Shown here piece after piece: positions 34,755-59,318 of a DNA stretch of 64,000 bases (position 1 is the stretch's first letter; each line of letters starts with the position of its first letter). The DNA is from Cylicocyclus nassatus (Eukaryota; Nematoda; Chromadorea; Rhabditida; Strongylidae). The stretch spans positions 29,577,441 to 29,641,440 of the forward strand of contig CATQJL010000316.1 of NCBI GenBank assembly GCA_958299035.1, in the 5' to 3' direction. The translations under genes and the position numbers were made by a program. Below the pieces are notes generated by a model. That model was not told where the DNA came from. It searched no databases and saw nothing but the letters and a program-made list of their open reading frames with translations.

Positions 34755-36539
34755 TATACAACTCTTTTGACTTTTGAACGTTTGCAAACTACGTTGTTGC
34801 AAATTGTAGAGCTAGCTTCGTTCTATATCAGCGGTAGAGAACTAATCACCAGTGTCATTTCATTACTGTAGGGTTTAGTTACAAAATCACAAAGTAGTGT
34901 CGTGCCATTGAAAGAAAACGTATTCGGAAGCAAATTTGAAGGAGCTGAAAACCTCGACACCAAACTTGTCCAAATCACTAATTCTAGCTATGAGCCTTGC
35001 ACTTTTTACTGAAATGTTATCTGAAGTCTGATTTTCAGCGTTTGACTTAAGAGTTCAATGACAATATCAAAGGATACGGAAATATATCCGATATTGATAA
35101 CCCTCTCTTACAAAAAGAAACACATCCATACTATAGTTTAAAAATAACAAAAGACAGAATACGCAGCCAGTATAGACATAAAAATAAAAACAAAGAAACA
35201 TTAGATACATTCTTAGAAAAAATCAACAATAAAAATACACAACAAGACTTATTCCGATACATTCATTCATTGAAAAAATGTTTTTTGAAACAGGTAATTA
35301 CAGCATGTTTTGATCCCACATTTTTGAACAAAATTGAACAAAATATAAAGACAACTACTTTAAGCATACTTTGCAAATTTTTGTTCAATGAAGTCAAAAA
35401 AGAAAATCAAAACATTAATTGTGTCAATGTCAATGTTGAATACATTCAAAGTATATTAGACGAAGTCAATCTGAATAAAATCATCAATAACAGTTATATA
35501 AAAAACATTCTCAAAAATAACAATAACAATTACAATCCCTGCAGACTTGTATACAAATACAAAAATCCATTCTCTCAAACAATTTTTAATTATAACTCCA
35601 TTCTTGCTAAACTTAATTTAGATAGAATAGACCAAATTCTAACCAAGGAATGCAAATGCAAAGAGCAAGAAATGAAAAAATATGTTGACAGTAACCATGG
35701 ACACATAGTTACCGGAAATTTGGAAATAATCAAAGACAAACAGTTAAAATCTATAATGAGTAAAGGTACCAAATACCGATTACACAACAACATCAATAAA
35801 AAAGAAATGATAAATTGGATTAACTCAACAGTTGAACTCATTATGAATAGTTACATCAAAAAATACAAAATTAAAAATGAAGAATTCAAAAATATAAAAA
35901 CTTTTCTTCTAAAAAAAATTCAAACACAGATTCAAACCACTTCTTTATAAAAGAAAACTGAATAATAAACATTACCTAAACGAACAAAATTACAACCTTG
36001 AAAATAAATATATCAAAAACTTTAAAAAGCATTTCGTAATTTGTCCATTAGATAAAGCAAATAATAATTTTGGTATAATTTGCATAAAGCTATACATCCA
36101 AACCATAATGAAAGAATTAGGTATCGCTTATAACAACAAAAAAATAATATTTGATGCAAACGAAACTTATAACCTATGCAAAGAAAATGCCAATGATATA
36201 ATTGAAAAACACATAAAATTTTGCGATAGCAACAAATTACCATCACAGAATATAAGTAACATTCCATTAATATACTGTCTACCAAAACTCCATAAAAACC
36301 CTATCAAATTTAGATTCATTACTGGAGCTACGCATAGTAGCATTAAACCACTAGCTTTAGAATTAAGGTATCTCTTTCAATACATCAAAACACATTTTAA
36401 AAACTATGTACAAGCTATAAAAAACAAAAAATATTCTTATAATTATTGGTCTATAGACAATATCGATATCAGTAACAAACTATCGAATATCAACGTAAAC
36501 AACATGCAAATATATTCAGCTGATTTTACTAATATGTTT

Positions 36540-36555
36540 ACAAGTCTACAAGTCC
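36540..36555 (+). repeat. 8-bp tandem duplication that shifts the RT frame
   Basis: ACAAGTCT is followed directly by ACAAGTCC. One extra octamer shifts the frame; without it the reading continues as FTSPHSIIKTNLKELL. It lies in the palm region just after the first catalytic aspartate motif. Confidence 0.7.
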
Positions 36556-36719
36556 ACATAGCATAATAAAAACAAATCTTAAAGAACTTCTTTCACTGTG
36601 CTTCAAAAAAGCAAACAAAAAATACTTAACGTATAATGGTTTTAATAAAATGTATTATACCGATACTATAAACACAAAATCAAAAAATAGATACTACACT
36701 ATTTCTGATTTATTATCTT

Positions 36720-37908
36720 ATATATAAAGCTGAATGTCTGTTTGTATGTATGTCTGTCTGTCTATCTGTATGTCTGTCTGTCTGTACGTATGTTCCGAAT
36801 AGAAAATTCCATTTCTGAACCGATCCGGACCAAACTTGGCACACATACACTTCGGGCCCCAGCGCGTGTCATAGGCTACTTTTCGTTATCGATCGATATC
36901 GATTTTATCGATTTTTATCGATTTTTTTGCTGAGTTCACCTAAGGGGCTGGGAGTTGGCACAGGGGGGTAATCGAGCATGGGGATTCCGAATACAATATT
37001 GGTTTTCAGGATTATCGATTACTTTTATCGATTTTATCGATTTTTTTGCAAAGTTTGAGCTACGGGGCTGGGAGTTCGCACAGGGGGGTAATCAAGCATG
37101 GGGATTCCGAATACAATATTGGTTTTCAGGATTATCGACTACTTTTATCGATTTTATCGATTTTTTTTGCAAAGTTTGAGCTACGGGGCTGGGAGTTTGC
37201 ACAGGGGGGTAATCAAGCATGGGGATTCCGAATACAATATTGGTTTTCGGGATTATCGATTGCTTTTATCGATTTTATCGATTTTTTGCAAAGTTTGAGC
37301 TAGGGGGCTGGGAGTTGGCACAGGGGGGTAATCGAGCATGCTGATCATCCCCAAGGGGGTGATCAGCATGCTCGATTACACCCCTGTGCCAAATTCCAGC
37401 CCCCTAGCTCAAATTTTCAAAAAATCGATAAAATCGATAAAAGTAATGGACGATCTTGAAAACTAATATTGTATTCGTAATCTGCATGCTCGATTACCCC
37501 CCTGTGCAAACTTCCAGCCCCGCAGGTCAAACTTTACAAAAAAAATCGATAAAATCGATAAAAGTAATGGACGATCCTGAAAACTAATATTGTGTTCGTA
37601 ATCAGCATGCTCGATTACCCCCCTGTGCAAAATCCCAGCCTCGCATGTCAAAATTTACAAAAAATCGATAAAATCAATAAAAGTAATCGATAATTCTGAA
37701 AACTAATATTGTATTCGGAATCCCCATGCTCACTTCCCCCCTGTGCCAACTCCTAGCCCTGTAGGTGAACTCTGCAAAAAAATCGATAAAAATCGGTAAA
37801 ATCGACATCGATCGATAACGAAAAGTGGACTGTGACACCCACCGGGGCCCGAAGTGTATGTGTGCCAAGTTTGGTCCGGATACGGCGGAGCCGGGTAAGC
37901 CAGCTAGT
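36720..37908 (+). mobile_element. Helitron-like foldback copy 1
   Basis: The unique 5' tip is followed by GTCTGTCTGTMTGT-type repeats and a subterminal inverted repeat with GGACCAAACTTGGCACACAT. Then come four tandem units of about 120 bp, each with ATCGATTTTATCGATTTTT and GGGGCTGGGAGTTSGCACAG. A perfect palindrome is centred near 37354, after which related units run in reverse. The 3' tip has GGCGGAGCCGGG before CTAGT. Subterminal inverted repeats with an asymmetric end fit non-autonomous Helentrons. No Rep/helicase is present. Confidence 0.75.
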
Positions 37909-38207
37909 GAGTTATAAAGTCGCGCAAATGACTTGTTTGTGCTAGTGAATGATTGAAACAATTTTTTATTTCCAGTTATTCGAGTTATCTTCGTAAAAAA
38001 TGTTTTTAAGGGCGAAGCTGCTACCACTCCCTTTATTCTGCAGTCTTAGACTATAAAGCGGCTAAGATTTCAAAAGCATCCTAGAAAATCTAGGCCTGGC
38101 TAAAGCGGACATACTTTAAGCCACGCCTCTTATTTCAGGCCCAAAAAACTCTCTGACCGAAATCATTGGACTTTATGCAAGCAAACAAAGTTTTTAAGTC
38201 AACTTAC

Positions 38208-38353
38208 TCGGCAAGCAAGATGAGAATGATTGGTCAGTTCTGGAGCTTCGTCTAACAAATCGTGTTCCTCCTGACTTGCAGGATTTATTCGATCAACTCG
38301 CTCAAAGTGTTCCGGTGTGAGGATAACGTGACAAGTGGAGCAAGCCATGGTAC
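38208..38353 (-). pseudogene. Captured exon of a mitochondrial [2Fe-2S] ferredoxin (adrenodoxin/FDX type)
   Basis: On the minus strand an acceptor TTTCCTCAG precedes the exon and a donor GTAAGT follows it. The translation has (G)TMACSTCHVILTPEHF, then LLDEAPELTNHSHLACR. This matches the adrenodoxin/ferredoxin core: the second and third cluster cysteines in ACSTCHV, the D-x-L-D-x-A-P helix, and the fourth cysteine before an R/Q. The first cluster cysteine would lie in the preceding exon, which is absent here, as is the last exon. So it is one intact exon without its gene. Ferredoxins of this type pass electrons for Fe-S cluster and heme/steroid synthesis in mitochondria. Confidence 0.85.
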
Positions 38354-38616
38354 CTGAGGAAAAAAAGAACAATGAGGTTGGAATGTAACTCTTACAAAAT
38401 TTTGAGTCCGTAAGTTTTCTTCGCTTTAATGGATTCTTTTTATAGAAGGGATTTACAAAAAGGATGTTATGCTCTTCCTAAGGAAAACTGCATTTCCGCA
38501 CGACGTCTGCAGCAACTGTCATCTCTCAGATTAGCATAGAGGAGATTATGCAAAAGTCATCGCAGCTATTGCGCCTGGCTTGTCATGTATAGAAATTCTC
38601 TGATGGTTGCGCGAGT

Positions 38617-38848
38617 CGATCGGTACGAGCTGGCACCGGGGAAATTTCGAAACGAAGTCCCCTTTGATCCTGAAAATTTTGTACCAAGTTCCGTTTGACC
38701 CTAAACTCTGAACGTAAAGATCCCTAAAAAAACGAAACGTCGATAAAACGTCGCAATTATTGTGTCTTTTCGGCCTCAAAAAAGATATCCCCTTTGCTTT
38801 TTGTCCCAAAAACGATATACAGCTTGACCCGGTGCCAGCTGTGTCGAG
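38617..38848. mobile_element. Small TIR element, family B copy 1
   Basis: GAGCTGGCACCGGGGAAATT at the left pairs with the reverse complement of the right end (GACCCGGTGCCAGCTG). A related copy in the opposite orientation is at 58935-59168. Both contain the TGTCTTTTCRGC and CAAAGGGGAYTT-type blocks. Confidence 0.6.
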
Positions 38849-39340
38849 TTCTGGTGCAAATACGTAGACCCCTCCTTTTTAGTAGTGTCTGCAGCAAAAT
38901 ATTGTTGTCATATCACGGCAGTTGAAGCTATTTGAATAAATTGTATTTTTTTCTGAGAACGATGAAAGGCCAAAACTTCCAACTTTCTCTCTAAAGTGGG
39001 TTTTATGAGTTATTTTCGGAACTAGAGTAGATTCGTGCTGTGGATGTCTCTAAGGTATAATTTTCGAATTTCTTTTTTTTTTCGAGTTTTGTTGTTTAAT
39101 AAGACTTCTACTATGATAAATAGGATAAAATTTCACATACATTATATAACGAAAGATGATCATGAATAATGAAGCACGAAAAATATCTAAATACTCTTAG
39201 AAAGCCTGAAGTTTTTGACACCATATTGGTCTAACCGACGGAAAATTTCAGATTTATTCCAAGGCTCACTACATTTGATTTACTCGAATCGAATCCCAGG
39301 CATTCGTTAGTGAGATAATGAATGCTGTTTTGGTTAACTT

Positions 39341-40511
39341 ATATATAAAGCTGAATGTCTGTTTGTCTGTATGTATGTATGTATGTGTGTACGTATGTTC
39401 CGAATAGAAAATTCCATTTCTGAACCGATCCGGACCAAACTTGGCACACATACACTTCGGTCCCCGGCGGGTGTCATAGGCTACTTTTCGTCATCGATCG
39501 ATATCGATTTTATCGATTTTTATCGATTTTTTTTGCAGAGTTCACCCACGGGGCTGGGAGTTGGCACAGGGGGGTAATCGAGCATGGGGATTCCGAATAC
39601 AATATTGGTTTTCAGGATTATCGATTACTTTTATCGATTTTATCGATTTTTTTGCAAAGTTTGAGCTACGGGGCTGGGAGTTGGCACAGGGGGTAATCGA
39701 GCATGGGGATTCCGAATACAATATTGGTTTTCAGGATTATCGATTACTTTTATCGATTTTATCGATTTTTTTGCAAAGTTTGAGCTACGGGGCTGGGAGT
39801 TCGCACAGGGGGGTAATCAAGCATGGGGATTCCGAATACAATATTGGTTTTCGGGATTATCGATTGCTTTTATCGATTTTATCGATTTTTTGCAAAGTTT
39901 GAGCTAGGGGGCTGGGAGTTGGCACAGGGGGGTAATCGAGCATGCTGATCATCCCCAAGGGGGTGATCAGCATGCTCGATTACACCCCTGTGCCAAATTC
40001 CAGCCCCCTAGCTCAAATTTTCAAAAAATCGATAAAATCGATAAAAGTAATGGACGATCTTGAAAACTAATATTGTATTCGTAATCTGCATGCTCGATTA
40101 CCCCCCTGTGCAAACTCCCAGCCCCGCAGGTCAAACTTTACAAAAAAAATCGATAAAATCGATAAAAGTAATGGACGATCCTGAAAACTAATATTGTGTT
40201 CGTAATCAGCATGCTCGATTACCCCCCTGTGCAAAATCCCAGCCTCGCATGTCAAAATTTACAAAAAATCGATAAAATCAATAAAAGTAATCGATAATTC
40301 TGAAAACTAATATTGTATTCGGAATCCCCATGCTCACTTCCCCCTGTGCCAACTCCTAGCCCTGTAGGTGAACTCTGCAAAAAAATCGATAAAAATCGGT
40401 AAAATCGACATCGATCGATAACGAAAAGTGGACTGTGACACCCACCGGGGCCCGAAGTGTATGTGTGCCAAGTTTGGTCCGGATACGGCGGAGCCGGGTA
40501 AGCCAGCTAGT
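39341..40511 (+). mobile_element. Helitron-like foldback copy 2
   Basis: It has the same order of parts as copy 1 and is nearly identical along most of its length, with small indels in the 5' TGTATG repeats and the 120-bp units. Its 5' tip follows TTAACTT. Its 3' CTAGT abuts the resumed PLE frame. Confidence 0.8.
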
Positions 40512-41075
40512 ATTACATAGATTATATCCTTGACAACAGTTTTTGTAGATTTAGTACGTACATCCTAAAACAAAAAGTTGGTGTACCACAGGGAGGTAAT
40601 TTTAGCCCTTTAATGGCAAATCTCACGTTATCTTGGTATGAATATAAATACTTGATTCAGAAAACCAATTACAACAATCACCTTTATGTATTCCGATATA
40701 TGGACGATTTATTAATCATACATAACAGCACAGAAACTGAAGTTAATAATACAATCATCAACGTATATGAAAACAAACTAGATTTAGATACTACACACGA
40801 GGATAAATTCAACTGTAATTATCTCGACTTAAACATTACAATTGTTAATAACAAGATAGTGACCAAAATGTATAATAAGACAGATAGTTTTCATTTTCAA
40901 GTAAAAAAATATACACACATGACTTCTAATGTTTCCATCCATATCAAAAAAGCTATAGTTTACACAGAAACTTTAAGAATTGCACGTACTTGCACCTATT
41001 TTAATGATTTTATTGAGAAAGTGTTACAACTGAGAAACATACCTATCTCTAATGGTTACGATGAAAACATAATTC

Positions 41076-49405: not shown

Positions 49406-50083
49406 ACAAGGTGTCCCAAAAAAATGTTAACACTGTTTGATCGTTAATAACTCCTTTGATTTCATGTCTTTCGACGAGCTTTAGATACCATTCTGTAGAG
49501 CGAGGTTCAACTTAGATTTAAGGTATGGAGCGAAGTACCGTTCGCTCTTCGTTACTGTAGGATTACGGTAAGAAATTCCAACATGTGGAACCGTCGTGAA
49601 ATATGCCCTCTGCCAATATTTTTTTCAAAAGATCTGAAAAATTGTGTACTAGGGTTTTCGCGTACGCTGATTTTACTACACAGGTTTTTACCAGTGTTTT
49701 CAGCTTTTTTGACGTTGTAAACACATTTTTGACACATGCTGGGAAGTCAATTATTACACTTTACCTAGGATAACTTTGGAAAGAAGTATCATAATAAAAT
49801 GGAAATCTCATATCCGAAATCAGCGGCTTTCATTACCATAGTGCAAGAGATTTTGGCTTGTTTGGCTCTGTTTCGAAGCAAAAATGGCTTTAATGGCCTA
49901 AAATCCTTGGCAAATTTCCTGCCGTAATTCTACAGTAACGAGGAGCGTTAGATGATTTGGTCCATACTGTGAATCTAAGTTGACCTCGCTCTACAGAATG
50001 GTACCTAAAGCTCGCCGAAAGACATGAAATCAAGGGAGTTATTAATGACCAAACAGTGTTAACATTTTTTTGGGACACCCTGT
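49406..50083. mobile_element. 678-bp Tc1/mariner-like element with ~120-bp TIRs
   Basis: The ends are ACAAGGTGTCCCAAAAAAAT and an inverted copy, continuing through GTTAACACTG and an inner block with CTTTCGACGAGCTTTAGATA. TA flanks both sides. There is no transposase frame. Confidence 0.8.
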
Positions 50084-50356
50084 ATATTTACATTTCTATA
50101 GGGCTGGTACATTGGACGGGGCACCACTCGTAAAACAAAGCATACCCTACAAAGTGACCATCAGAAGTCCGCTAAGTCGTAATCTGCCTAACTCTTGAAA
50201 AAATCTAAAGATAATGAATGCCTAGAAATTAGATCTCAACTTAGCAAAGTCTGCAAAACTCCTACTCAGTCAGCACTCAATACGCTCACAAACATTCATT
50301 ACACGCATTCATACCTAGTAGGTTCTCAAACAGTTATTACGAGCATCCGCGGCCCT

Positions 50357-50836
50357 TAAAGGCACCGTACACCCAAAATGGAGGTTGGCGAGATTATGAT
50401 GGCATACTAGTGTGGGCCCTCATACTAGACAAACCTCCAAGGTTCGCCGCAAAGGACTACTTCTCAAGCGAGATATCCGCTCTGGAAGTAACAAAGTGGG
50501 CGGGGCGCCCCCGGCGGTCCACACAACTCGAATTCAATGTTTTTGTCGCCTTCAGGCCTTTTGAAAGCCCTGATTCCGAATATGGAGTCGAAAATTCGCG
50601 AAACCCCCAAAAGTCCCTGTTTTGAGAACACTCTGCAACAAGTGCAGGCGAGATAAAGCATGCAAGTGGGCGGGGCGACCGGGGGCGCCCCGTCCACTTT
50701 GCTACTTCCGGAGCGGATTTCTCGCTCCAGAAGCAGTCTTTTGCGGCGAAACTTGGGGGTTTGTCTAGTATGGGGGCCCACACTAGTATGCCATCATAAT
50801 CTCGCCAACCCCCATTTTGGGTGGACGGTGCCTTCA
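50357..50836. mobile_element. 480-bp TIR element with ~145-bp arms
   Basis: AAGGCACCGTACACCCAAAA at the left is matched by the inverted right end. Further shared blocks are GGTTGGCGAGATTATGATGG and the GGCGGGGCG core. TTAA at the left and TTCAA at the right border it. Confidence 0.75.
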
Positions 50837-50849
50837 ATAGTGCCTTTTG

Positions 50850-52800
50850 GTGGCGCGCGGGAGTTGAATTTTTATACTGACCATCCGCGGCCCTTGATTC
50901 ACTTGCTTAATGACCCGCGGCTCAATGTTTTCGCTAGTTAAAACTGGCGGATTTTAATTGTTCTACCGGGACACCCTCGATCCGGGAAAAAACACTCGGG
51001 CGGGCCACGGACCTTTTAACGTAGTTTCTGCAACGGGCAAGCTTCGGCCCTTACCGGACACCGCCCATATCGTATCTCAGTTATGCCGCGGGCTTAATCG
51101 GTGCCGCGCACATCATTTTCGGGCAGGCCCCGGATCTTCTAGGCAACGGCACAGAATCAGTCTGACAAGCCGCGCGTCTTGCCAGACGCCGCAATTCTTG
51201 CACGCTGTAAGCAAAAAAGTTTCTGGCGTGAGATACGTTGCGCTGATAGAGGTACCCTCAACGTTTGGGTCGTTGGTTATCGCTCCTTGGTATGTGGCTT
51301 GTAGTAAAGACGGTACGCTGTGGCTCTCGCCAGAGTGCGGAAGCCATGCCAGCGCCGAGCTGCCCCGGCGCTCTTTCGATCGATACACGTGCATTTCGTT
51401 GGGGCGGGGCTAGCTGACCTAGTTCTCAGCAAGGTAGATGCGACTATTGATCGAATCTGCCAGAAGCTCCGGTAGCCCTTGCCCGCATAGGGTTAGCTAG
51501 CCCCGCCCCGAACAAATTTGACAGCTCGGCGGTGGCTCGGCGCCGGCGCAGCGCTGGCGTGGTTTCGGCACTCTGGCGGGGGCCTGAGGTGTCCTCTTTT
51601 AGGGTTACTTAAATCTGGAACTTGGGCCTTGAGACAGAAGACAAATTTTGACGCATATCCTGACCCGTGTGCGAGGGCGAGAAAAATGGAAACAGGTGTT
51701 CAAAAATTGGAATAAATGTAAATTACTGCGTTTAGCAACCGCGTATCGGGCCACTAGCGATGCATATCGCGCATCCGTCGGGTGCTTGTCTGGACATCCG
51801 CGGGTGTCGTTCGAGCGCTTAGCGACGCATCCGCGGGTAACTTCGGCCGCTTAGCGTGCGTTTATTCTACACCCGCGGCATGGATGAAACGTCGACGGGG
51901 CCCTTCCGCGGGTGGTCGCAATAATTGTCTGAGTTGGTGCAAAAGTAATGAGTGTTTCTTCTGCCGCAGCCGCACTGTCAATATAAATGGACGGGGCACT
52001 CTGAAAGAGCAAAGCTTACTCATGAAAGGCATTAATCAGAATCATCACAGCAAAGTTGGATCTTTCTTTGACAAGTGGAAACTTCTTCTTCGTGCAGAAC
52101 TTTTCAAATTAATCCTCGAATGCACCTTATATAGTGGATACAGATGCACATTCCATGGCAAAAATTCGATAGAGTAACTTTTTCGGAAAGGAATGAAAGA
52201 CTTTGACCATTGCTAGCAAACAAACATGAAGTTATGATGTATTCTTCACCAATTGATTTATGATCGTGATGTTCATTTTGCACCGATGAGAATTTCTTGG
52301 CGGCAATGTATCAAGGATGCTCAAGAATCAATTCTGGCACTGTTTTGGAAATTAAGAGCTGGTTAGTTCTCTTACTCTTTTTTCAATGGCAAATCTGTGA
52401 AAGACAGTATCTTGGACAAAGCTTTACGGGCTGTAAAATGACAGGTTATTGTTCTTCGTTCCTGCAAGAGATTTGTGGTTGTGATGGATTGCGATGGAAA
52501 GAATATAGTGAACGCTTTACAGCTAACAGTGGTTTCAGATAACTGGATTGACTGTAAAACTATTTTGTACAGTCTGGGTAGATCGTCTTTCGCACCATAT
52601 GACTGCCAACAAATTACTATGAAAGGTCAAAATTGCTGCATAATTTTACAGTAAACTACCCGGGATCTCGCTCTCGCCTGTGTCACGGCTTCAATCGCAT
52701 CTGGTATAGGATTGTATGCGATCTCTCTCAACTCTCTTCTTCCACTGACATCCCAACTTCTAATTTACTGCACTAATTCCTTGTCGTAAATAATCTCACA
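50850..52800. other. GC-rich anonymous DNA with a hairpin-forming block
   Basis: Segment 51325-51415 (CTCGCCAGAGTGCGGAAGCC to GGGCGGGGCTAGCT) is an imperfect inverted copy of 51495-51585. The pair can form a long hairpin. GC-rich open frames (50958-51413, 51518-51715) follow from this composition and show no domain. Sequence after 52000 returns to ordinary AT content. Confidence 0.4.
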
Positions 52801-57859: not shown

Positions 57860-58930
57860 TCTTGTGGATAACTGATTTGCGGATCTGTTAACATAGACTA
57901 TAAAGGTACAGTAAGCCTAATTCTCATTATACACGATCTCTGGATTGCCAAAACAAGGATTCAAAGAGTAATTTGGGTAAGTTGAGGGAATTCTACGCTT
58001 AAGACTAAAGTCGGAAATTTTTCAAAAGAATTGTAGATTCACTGACTTTATCCTCTTCGCCATTTTTTCAAATAAATTTAGATCTGAAAGCAGTCTCACA
58101 CTTGCATCGTACAGGTACCGTAACCATGATTACGGTAGTTTGAACACGAGCTGATGTAGTACTGCTTTCGGAGCTAACAAAGAAGTGATGCTTGGTTGAA
58201 GTGGCGTTCCCATTTAAAATGTATATGGGCCTTATAGAGCTTGGGACGCTGATTTCCAAAAATGTGCTTTTGTATCTGCAAAGCGCTTCTGTGAGGGCAT
58301 TGTGGGAATTATTTGAGAAATTTGAAAACGCACAAAATAAAATCATTCAGAGTTGCAACGATGAGCTCCGATGGGTCCATGATTACTGCCAAGTCACTTT
58401 GTGCAGTTGATACCGTTCAACAAAATTATGCTAGTCATTACTGTTTTCAACGCCGGAAGAATCTTAACACCTGTTTTTCTCCTAGTCAAACGCTTAACTT
58501 TACGTATAGAAATTCCCTTCGCCCTCAAAAGTGCTTGCAGATACCGAAAGTAAATTCGAAATCAGCGTCCACACTCTGTAAGAAGGAGAAGATATAGATT
58601 TCATATAGAAACTCCACTTTGACCAAGTATCTTTCCCTTGTGAGATCCATTTGCTTCAAGGAAATCACTGCATCAAGAAACAAGATGAGCAAATTCGGCG
58701 AAGTCCGAGAACTCGAGGAAATCGGCAAAGTTTTGACAACACGACATATTTTCGCTTTTGTAGACTTAATGATACCACTCTCCATTTTTCGTACGAAAAA
58801 ATCTTCAATGTCAAAAAAGTCAAAGGTGGGCTTGTTTCAAGATCTCTTATGGGTTCCAGAAGAAATAATATATTAATAATCCAATCAGCCGCCTTCACTC
58901 ATAAAAATCATTCTTGCTCTAGATCCCTAT
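57860..58930. other. Coding-like but unassigned sequence
   Basis: Plus-strand frames at 58192-58410 and 58619-58932 have reasonable composition (for example SVRALWELFEKFENAQNK and SRSLMGSRRNNILII) but change frame and lack consistent splice sites. They may be remnants of a gene. No domain is recognised. Confidence 0.25.
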
Positions 58931-58934
58931 AGGA

Positions 58935-59168
58935 TAGGGCTCGGCACAGCTGGTACCGGCCAAACTGGTCTTCGTTTCTAGTACAAAAAAGCAAGGGGAT
59001 ATCGTTTTGTGCTGAAAAGACACAAAAACACAACGTTTTTCAGTCAATCCTTCGTCTTTCGAGGGTTTTTACTTCAAGGGTTTAGTGTCAAAGGAAACTT
59101 CGTACGATCAAGATCAAAGGGGACTTGTTTTGAAATTTCTCTGGTGCCAGGTCGTGCCGAGCCCTACC
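58935..59168. mobile_element. Small TIR element, family B copy 2
   Basis: TAGGGCTCGGCACAGCTGGT and the inverted right end TAGGGCTCGGCACGACCTGG bound it. It is related to 38617-38848, in the opposite orientation. Confidence 0.7.
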
Positions 59169-59318
59169 TTAGGAACCAGTCATAACAGAACTTTATGTGT
59201 GTTGTAATTACATGCTTTAGCAGCGGAAATTGATCATTGTAATTTTTCCAGCAAATTCCCCCCCCCCCCTCAATTAGTCTCAAAATTTGCCCCGTTCTAT
59301 TTACCACCTATTACCCAC

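What the first reader, a model, noticed from the sequence alone, without database searches (positions are those of the whole stretch)
36720..40511. Two Helitron-like copies moved as one unit, carrying host DNA into a retroelement
Seen: two near-identical 1.2-kb copies with Helitron-type tips (5' ATATATAAAGCTGAATG, 3' AGCTAGT) flank 1.4 kb of other DNA. The RT codons on the outer sides join exactly in frame (TTA TCT T / AT TAC ATA). No PLE sequence lies between the copies. Known: rolling-circle elements can read past a 3' end to a later one. Inference: transposition began at the 5' tip of copy 1, skipped its terminator and stopped at that of copy 2, capturing the segment between. This is a clear sequence-level example of terminator bypass using two copies.
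Basis: partly seen in the sequence, partly recalled or inferred. Interest (0 to 1): 0.85.

Follow-up and report, generated by a model that had tools for sequence, protein, structure and literature searches.

The report
Two-copy Helitron carrying a ferredoxin exon
A jumping-DNA element of the Helitron type, made of two copies of itself around a stolen piece of a ferredoxin gene, sits inside another mobile element and most likely landed there as one block; it is a clean natural example of a known way in which such elements pick up host genes.

Summary
Two Helitron copies in direct orientation (1,192 and 1,174 bp) enclose 1,429 bp of host DNA, together 3,795 bp at 36716-40510 in a retroelement RT gene. 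The only other full-length match to the enclosed DNA (40 of 3,225 candidates scored) is the native adrenodoxin-type ferredoxin gene on C305. There the DNA is contiguous, with no Helitron at either border. The upstream border is a perfect A^T site; the downstream one fits only if two bases changed. The genome has 8,059 exact 5' tips of the family and 144 head-to-tail CTAG|TC junctions. Best explanation (about 0.68): two copies once flanked the exon on a haplotype absent from the assembly; transfer began at copy 1, passed its terminator and ended at that of copy 2. The copies are mosaic (unrelated 5' parts, nearly identical 3' parts), which needs gene conversion and keeps recombination rivals alive. 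The mechanism is published; this is a well-documented member.

The parts
36716..40510 (+). Whole composite Helitron insertion, 3,795 bp, TC...CTAG, between A36715 and T40511
   Evidence: Family tips; 9 of 10 other retroelement copies contiguous at exactly this point
36716..37907 (+). Helitron copy 1 (1,192 bp), no long open frame; internal inverted repeat arms of about 120-bp units
37908..39336 (-). Captured host piece (1,429 bp); counterpart C305:83080283-83081712, 14 substitutions in about 1,424 aligned bases plus a few small indels
38208..38353 (-). One exon of an adrenodoxin/FDX-type [2Fe-2S] ferredoxin gene (ACSTCHVIL...), AG acceptor and GTAAGT donor present
   Evidence: Pfam Fer2 only below its cut-off on this 48-residue piece
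38628..38840 (.). Dispersed short element with 13-bp terminal inverted repeats; also present in the native ferredoxin locus, so captured with it
39337..40510 (+). Helitron copy 2 (1,174 bp); its first base reads A where copy 1 and the 28 other elements read have T
37737..37907 (+). Last 171 bp of copy 1, identical to those of copy 2 (the terminator that would have been passed)
40340..40510 (+). Last 171 bp of copy 2 (the terminator that would have been used)
35051..36715 (+). Left part of the interrupted retroelement (RT gene, already frameshifted upstream of the insertion)
40511..41075 (+). Right part of the interrupted retroelement; homology to most of the closest other copies stops at 41075

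Best explanation
This is a composite non-autonomous Helitron. On a haplotype not represented in the assembly, two family members had inserted in the same orientation at two A^T sites about 1.43 kb apart in introns on either side of one exon of the native ferredoxin gene (C305). Rolling-circle transfer began at the TC end of copy 1, ran past its CTAG terminator through the host DNA and stopped at the terminator of copy 2. The 3.8-kb product then inserted into an A^T site in the RT gene of a retroelement copy on C316. Shown: outer ends of one regular Helitron insertion, the empty target in other copies, the native source of the cargo and the A^T site at the upstream border. Inferred: the former presence of both copies at the source, the bypass step, movement as one unit rather than assembly in place, and a gene conversion that made the 3' parts of the two copies alike.
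For: The outer ends obey the Helitron insertion rules, and 9 of 10 other retroelement copies are uninterrupted at exactly that dinucleotide. The cargo is contiguous at C305, with the preceding ferredoxin exon lying outside the captured piece, so C305 is the native source. The upstream border at C305 is A^T (TTAAA^TGAGTT), and the downstream border has A^T (GGTCA^TATC) at the position expected by length; AT is 7.7% of dinucleotides in those 22 kb. The 5' parts of the two copies share no base that is rare in the 26 other sequences and differ more (11/394) than the cargo differs from its source (14/1424; Poisson p = 0.002), as expected of two older independent insertions. With 8,059 exact 5' tips, about 170 same-strand pairs within 2.7 kb are expected by chance, so two-copy donors are not rare. 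144 exact head-to-tail CTAG|TC junctions, six of them in one array, suggest that termination is often missed in this family, although insertion beside an existing copy is the other published reading. For Helraiser, capture past an intact terminator was put at about 11.7% of transposition events (PMC4778049, passages).
Against: The native locus in the assembly carries neither copy. The downstream junction reads GGTTA|AC instead of GGTCA|TC: two changes within three bases, or a three-base filler. A paralogous stretch also has the C, so the change is on the composite's side, and the 28 other elements read all start with T. The 3' parts of the copies share three private bases and differ by only 1 substitution in 709, less than expected from the cargo's divergence (p = 0.007), so a conversion event is needed. 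No 3' hairpin better than shuffles was found with DNA parameters. Same-strand pairs are not clearly in excess: 5 among the first 100 tips against about 2.9 expected.
Confidence: 0.68

Rival explanations
1. In-place expansion by recombination: a single Helitron first inserted in the retroelement; later ectopic gene conversion, or integration of an excised circle, against a locus with Helitron-ferredoxin-Helitron copied the cargo in between, leaving two hybrid copies.
For: Predicts the same outer A^T ends. Explains in one step why the 3' parts (position 484 on) are nearly identical with three shared private bases while the 5' parts are unrelated. With 8,059 exact 5' tips there is ample substrate.
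Against: Still needs a donor carrying both copies, plus a double-ended ectopic exchange; bypass needs only one transposition. No allele with a single Helitron in this retroelement copy is available to compare.
Confidence: 0.15
2. Multi-lap circle: only one Helitron sat in the ferredoxin gene; transfer ran past its end into host DNA, closed a circle of Helitron plus cargo, and a second lap added the second Helitron before stopping.
For: Needs only one donor insertion; head-to-tail junctions and an array of this family exist. Explains the shared private bases of the 3' parts.
Against: Copies should be alike over their whole length; the 5' parts share no rare base and differ by 11/394. The A^T at the downstream host border would be coincidence (about 8%). 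It does not explain the irregular inner junction unless closure altered bases.
Confidence: 0.1
3. Filler-DNA capture: a break between two adjacent Helitrons already in the retroelement was repaired using ferredoxin DNA.
For: The irregular GGTTAAC junction could be repair filler; the native locus would naturally be empty, as it is.
Against: The break must fall exactly between a complete CTAG end and a start lacking at most one base, and both host borders would be A^T by chance.
Confidence: 0.05
4. Assembly artefact: a ferredoxin haplotype was joined into a retroelement::Helitron locus through the shared repeat.
For: The donor arrangement was not found in the assembly; no reads were available.
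Against: The genome is in 369 pieces with at least one contig of 107.7 Mb, which suggests long reads able to span 1.2-kb repeats (inference); the two copies are distinguishable.
Confidence: 0.02

Closest known systems
Helitron end-bypass (read-through) gene capture ending at the terminator of a downstream Helitron
   Same: Starts at one 5' end, skips its 3' end, ends at the next 3' end, carrying the DNA between; called the prevailing explanation in PMC6431247 (passages) and 'composite transposition between neighboring Helitrons' in PMC4067079 (passages)
   Different: Here both copies are of one family, their ends are identical over 171 bp, empty copies of the target and the native source are identified, and the assembled source is empty at both borders
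Helraiser 3'-transduction (bat Helitron, cell assay)
   Same: TC/CTAG ends; flanking DNA captured when the terminator is passed (PMC4778049, passages)
   Different: Experimental, described with alternative downstream ends; here the end used is another complete family terminator and the event is natural
Head-to-tail tandem Helitrons (bat, maize, silkworm)
   Same: CTAG|TC junctions without A, ascribed to bypass (PMC4067079, passages) or, in a maize case, to insertion beside an existing element (PMC2267711, passages); 144 such junctions in this genome
   Different: The composite here has 1.4 kb of host DNA between the copies
Helentrons/HINEs (DINE-1 type)
   Same: Non-autonomous, microsatellite near the 5' tip, internal repeats
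   Different: Those insert between T and T (recalled); this family inserts at A^T with TC/CTAG ends

Membership tests
Helitron (canonical) | 5' TC and 3' CTRR termini | tested here: met
   Composite TC...CTAG; of 28 other elements read, 28 start TC and 27 end CTAG (L055 ends CTAT)
Helitron (canonical) | Insertion between A and T without target-site duplication | tested here: met
   9 of 10 other retroelement copies read TTA|TAT; 25 of 28 other elements preceded by A, 28 of 28 followed by T
Helitron (canonical) | Hairpin near the 3' end | tested here: inconclusive
   Last 42 and 48 nt fold no better than shuffles with DNA parameters; with RNA parameters an imperfect hairpin of -16.0 kcal/mol, without shuffle control; a 4-bp-stem hairpin is visible about 14 nt from the end
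Helitron (canonical) | Rep/helicase protein in the element or an autonomous partner in the genome | not tested
   No long open frame in the copies; the genome search for PF14214 did not complete
Helitron end-bypass composite | Two complete copies in the same orientation within the outer ends of one insertion | tested here: met
Helitron end-bypass composite | Inner DNA contiguous at a source locus, with Helitron insertion sites at both borders | tested here: inconclusive
   Contiguous at C305; upstream A^T exact, downstream A^T only with two base changes
Helitron end-bypass composite | Source haplotype carrying both copies (prediction) | tested here: inconclusive
   Assembled haplotype carries neither copy; other haplotypes are not held
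Helentron/HINE | Insertion between T and T (recalled) | tested here: not met
   A^T instead
Penelope-like retroelement (target) | PLE-type RT and GIY-YIG endonuclease | tested here: inconclusive

The most novel reading that the evidence does not exclude
The ferredoxin gene carried at most one Helitron. Transfer ran past its end into the host exon, closed a circle and made a second lap, so that host DNA was locked between two laps of the same element; the irregular inner junction is the circle-closure point. Two-copy 'transposons' could then be built from one insertion, and could move further as units with interchangeable terminators.
Probability: 0.1. Interest if true: 0.7.

Novelty: new member of a known kind. 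Interest (0 to 1): 0.45.

Why it matters
Here the product, empty copies of the target and the native source are all identified in one genome, with base-level junctions. The passed and the used terminator are identical over 171 bp, which, if bypass is right and the identity is original, means that termination is probabilistic rather than lost by mutation. The family (8,059 exact 5' tips, 144 head-to-tail junctions) is a good natural system for measuring how often termination fails.

Tried and rejected
Rejected: two separate insertions into the retroelement, because no retroelement bases lie between the copies and the cargo is contiguous in a ferredoxin locus. Rejected: Helentron/HINE type (A^T, not T^T). 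Rejected: a retrocopy of ferredoxin, because both splice signals and intron parts are present. Rejected: C305 as a derived copy, because it has the preceding exon outside the captured piece.

Led nowhere: three scans of viral contigs for family sequences, no hits; Rfam and tRNA scans of the window, no matches; a paper search with 'RTM2' gave no papers; 'RTM2' as a name for read-through to the next Helitron is recalled, not read. The search for the Helitron Rep/helicase (PF14214) in the genome did not complete, and one for other ferredoxin copies did not complete. The private-base analysis used 26 distinct other sequences, chosen by likeness to copy 1 out of thousands, and its breakpoint (position 483/484) was set after seeing the data, so the Fisher and Poisson p-values are descriptive.

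Full report
WHAT IS THERE. The window (C316:29577441-29641440 of a 514.7-Mb assembly in 369 contigs) holds two near-identical copies of a 1.2-kb repeat in the same orientation, with 1.43 kb of other DNA between them. They lie inside a gene whose right part has a reverse transcriptase match (RVT_1, E = 3e-8). Each copy carries a TG-rich microsatellite near its 5' tip and a large internal inverted repeat made of units of about 120 bp.

THE ENDS. Thirty loci of the family, the best matches to copy 1, were fetched (which scored 40 of 3,856 candidates); two of them are the window's own copies. At the other places 28 distinct elements were read. All 28 start TCTTATATATA; 27 end CTAG and one ends CTAT (L055). 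All 28 are followed by T; 25 are preceded by A, two by G and one by T (recount). These are canonical Helitron ends and targets. The insertion in the window therefore runs from T36716 to G40510 (3,795 bp = 1,192 + 1,429 + 1,174), between A36715 and T40511. A 3' hairpin is weak or missing: the last 42 and 48 nt fold no better than shuffles with DNA parameters. With RNA parameters an imperfect hairpin of -16.0 kcal/mol appears, without a shuffle control.

THE TARGET. Ten other copies of the retroelement were read, out of the 42 rows. Nine are uninterrupted and read GATTTATTA|TATTACATAG; the tenth (L072) is unrelated on that side. TCTTATTAC is in none of the ten. So the outer ends of the composite lie exactly in an A^T dinucleotide without duplication, and nothing of the retroelement was lost or gained.

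THE CARGO. One search scored 40 of 3,225 candidates. Besides the window itself, one match has full length, at C305; the other 38 rows cover only a dispersed short element inside the cargo. The C305 counterpart is 83080283-83081712, with 14 substitutions in about 1,424 aligned bases plus a few small indels. The match starts at the base after the CTAG of copy 1 and ends within three bases of the start of copy 2. It holds one exon of an adrenodoxin-type ferredoxin on the minus strand with splice signals. Solved ferredoxins match it (best E = 4.7e-9), while Pfam Fer2 stays below its cut-off on this short piece (E = 0.022). C305 has no Helitron at either border. The upstream border there reads TTAAA^TGAGTT, a regular A^T site. 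The downstream border reads GGTCA^TATC; a regular insertion would give GGTCA|TCTTATAT, but the composite has GGTTA|ACTTATAT, with the same length and two changes. A paralogous inverted repeat at C305 has the C as well, so the change is on the composite's side. This is the weakest link.

THE TWO COPIES ARE MOSAIC. Compared with 26 distinct other family sequences, the 5' parts of copies 1 and 2 (to position 483) share no rare base (none held by 4 or fewer of the 26). The 3' parts share three bases (positions 500, 547, 1126) found in none of the 26, and three more found in 2 to 4 of them. Outside the microsatellite the copies differ by 11 substitutions in 394 bp on the 5' side and 1 in 709 bp on the 3' side (Fisher p = 9e-5, breakpoint chosen after the fact). 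Against the cargo's divergence of 0.98%, the 5' side is too different (Poisson p = 0.002) and the 3' side too similar (p = 0.007). That yardstick is rough, because it may reflect haplotype differences at the source. Reading: two independent family members, with conversion of the 3' part; or hybrid copies made by recombination.

THE FAMILY. The genome has 8,059 exact 5' tips (4,007 + 4,052; reversed-pattern control 0). At that density about 170 same-strand pairs within 2.7 kb are expected by chance. Among the first 100 tips listed there are 5 such pairs, where about 2.9 are expected in that stretch, which is no clear excess. Exact head-to-tail junctions CCAGCTAG|TCTTATATATAAAG, without an A between, occur 144 times (63 + 81; control 0), including six in a row at C1:29439170-29444580; two were read directly (L074, L075). 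Published passages ascribe such junctions to missed termination (PMC4067079) or to insertion beside an existing Helitron (PMC2267711).

MECHANISM. The simplest account of outer A^T ends, contiguous native cargo and an A^T upstream border is that two copies once flanked the exon on another haplotype and that transfer starting at copy 1 ended at copy 2. Capture past an intact terminator is documented experimentally (about 11.7% of events, PMC4778049, passages), and use of a downstream Helitron's signal is part of what a review calls the prevailing explanation (PMC6431247, passages). Shown here: outer ends, empty copies of the target, source and upstream border. Not shown: the donor haplotype, and movement as one unit. 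In-place recombination and a multi-lap circle remain possible; both fit the outer ends, and recombination fits the mosaic well.

COMPARISON AND VERDICT. By termini and target this is a canonical-type, non-autonomous Helitron; the partner enzyme was not tested. By anatomy it is an end-bypass composite. The kind is known; what stands out is that product, empty copies of the target and native source are all in hand, and that the ends of the two copies are identical over 171 bp. Papers were seen as search listings and passages only, not whole texts. The literature searches bearing on such two-copy cases cover only openly licensed papers, so I make no claim that such a case is unpublished. Two of the ten RT hits carry an organism name, and both are nematodes (Cooperia, Heligmosomoides), which is only a hint.

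Noticed in passing
C1:29439170-29444580 (minus strand): Array of one Helitron family with six exact CTAG|TC junctions at about 1.05-1.17 kb spacing; looks like a rolling-circle concatemer.
   Followed up: no
L043 and L047, just before position 1498: Family members that directly follow a CTAG not of this family; in L043 the preceding 23 bases are a perfect hairpin with CTAG at both ends (CTAGCGACCC GTA GGGTCGCTAG), probably the end of a different Helitron family.
   Followed up: partly
C223:59091139-59093491: Two family members in the same orientation only 25 bp apart, each with regular A and T flanks: either two close insertions or another composite.
   Followed up: partly
C305:83081581-83083323 and 83084560-83086272: A 1.7-kb inverted duplication (94%) beside the ferredoxin gene that includes a second copy of one of its exons.
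   Followed up: partly
window 38628-38840 and 58930-59171: Dispersed short element with terminal inverted repeats; 38 further places among the 40 scored of 3,225 candidates.
   Followed up: partly
window 41075: Homology with most of the closest other copies of the retroelement stops at 41075, although the reading frame continues to 41200: probable end of this retroelement copy.
   Followed up: no
C316:69432995-69433880 and C112:49084030-49085335: Two other copies of the retroelement appear split in the same RT stretch by about 0.3 and 0.7 kb of other DNA.
   Followed up: no
window 50000-52000: Stretch with markedly higher GC (0.52 against about 0.40) and several overlapping open frames.
   Followed up: no
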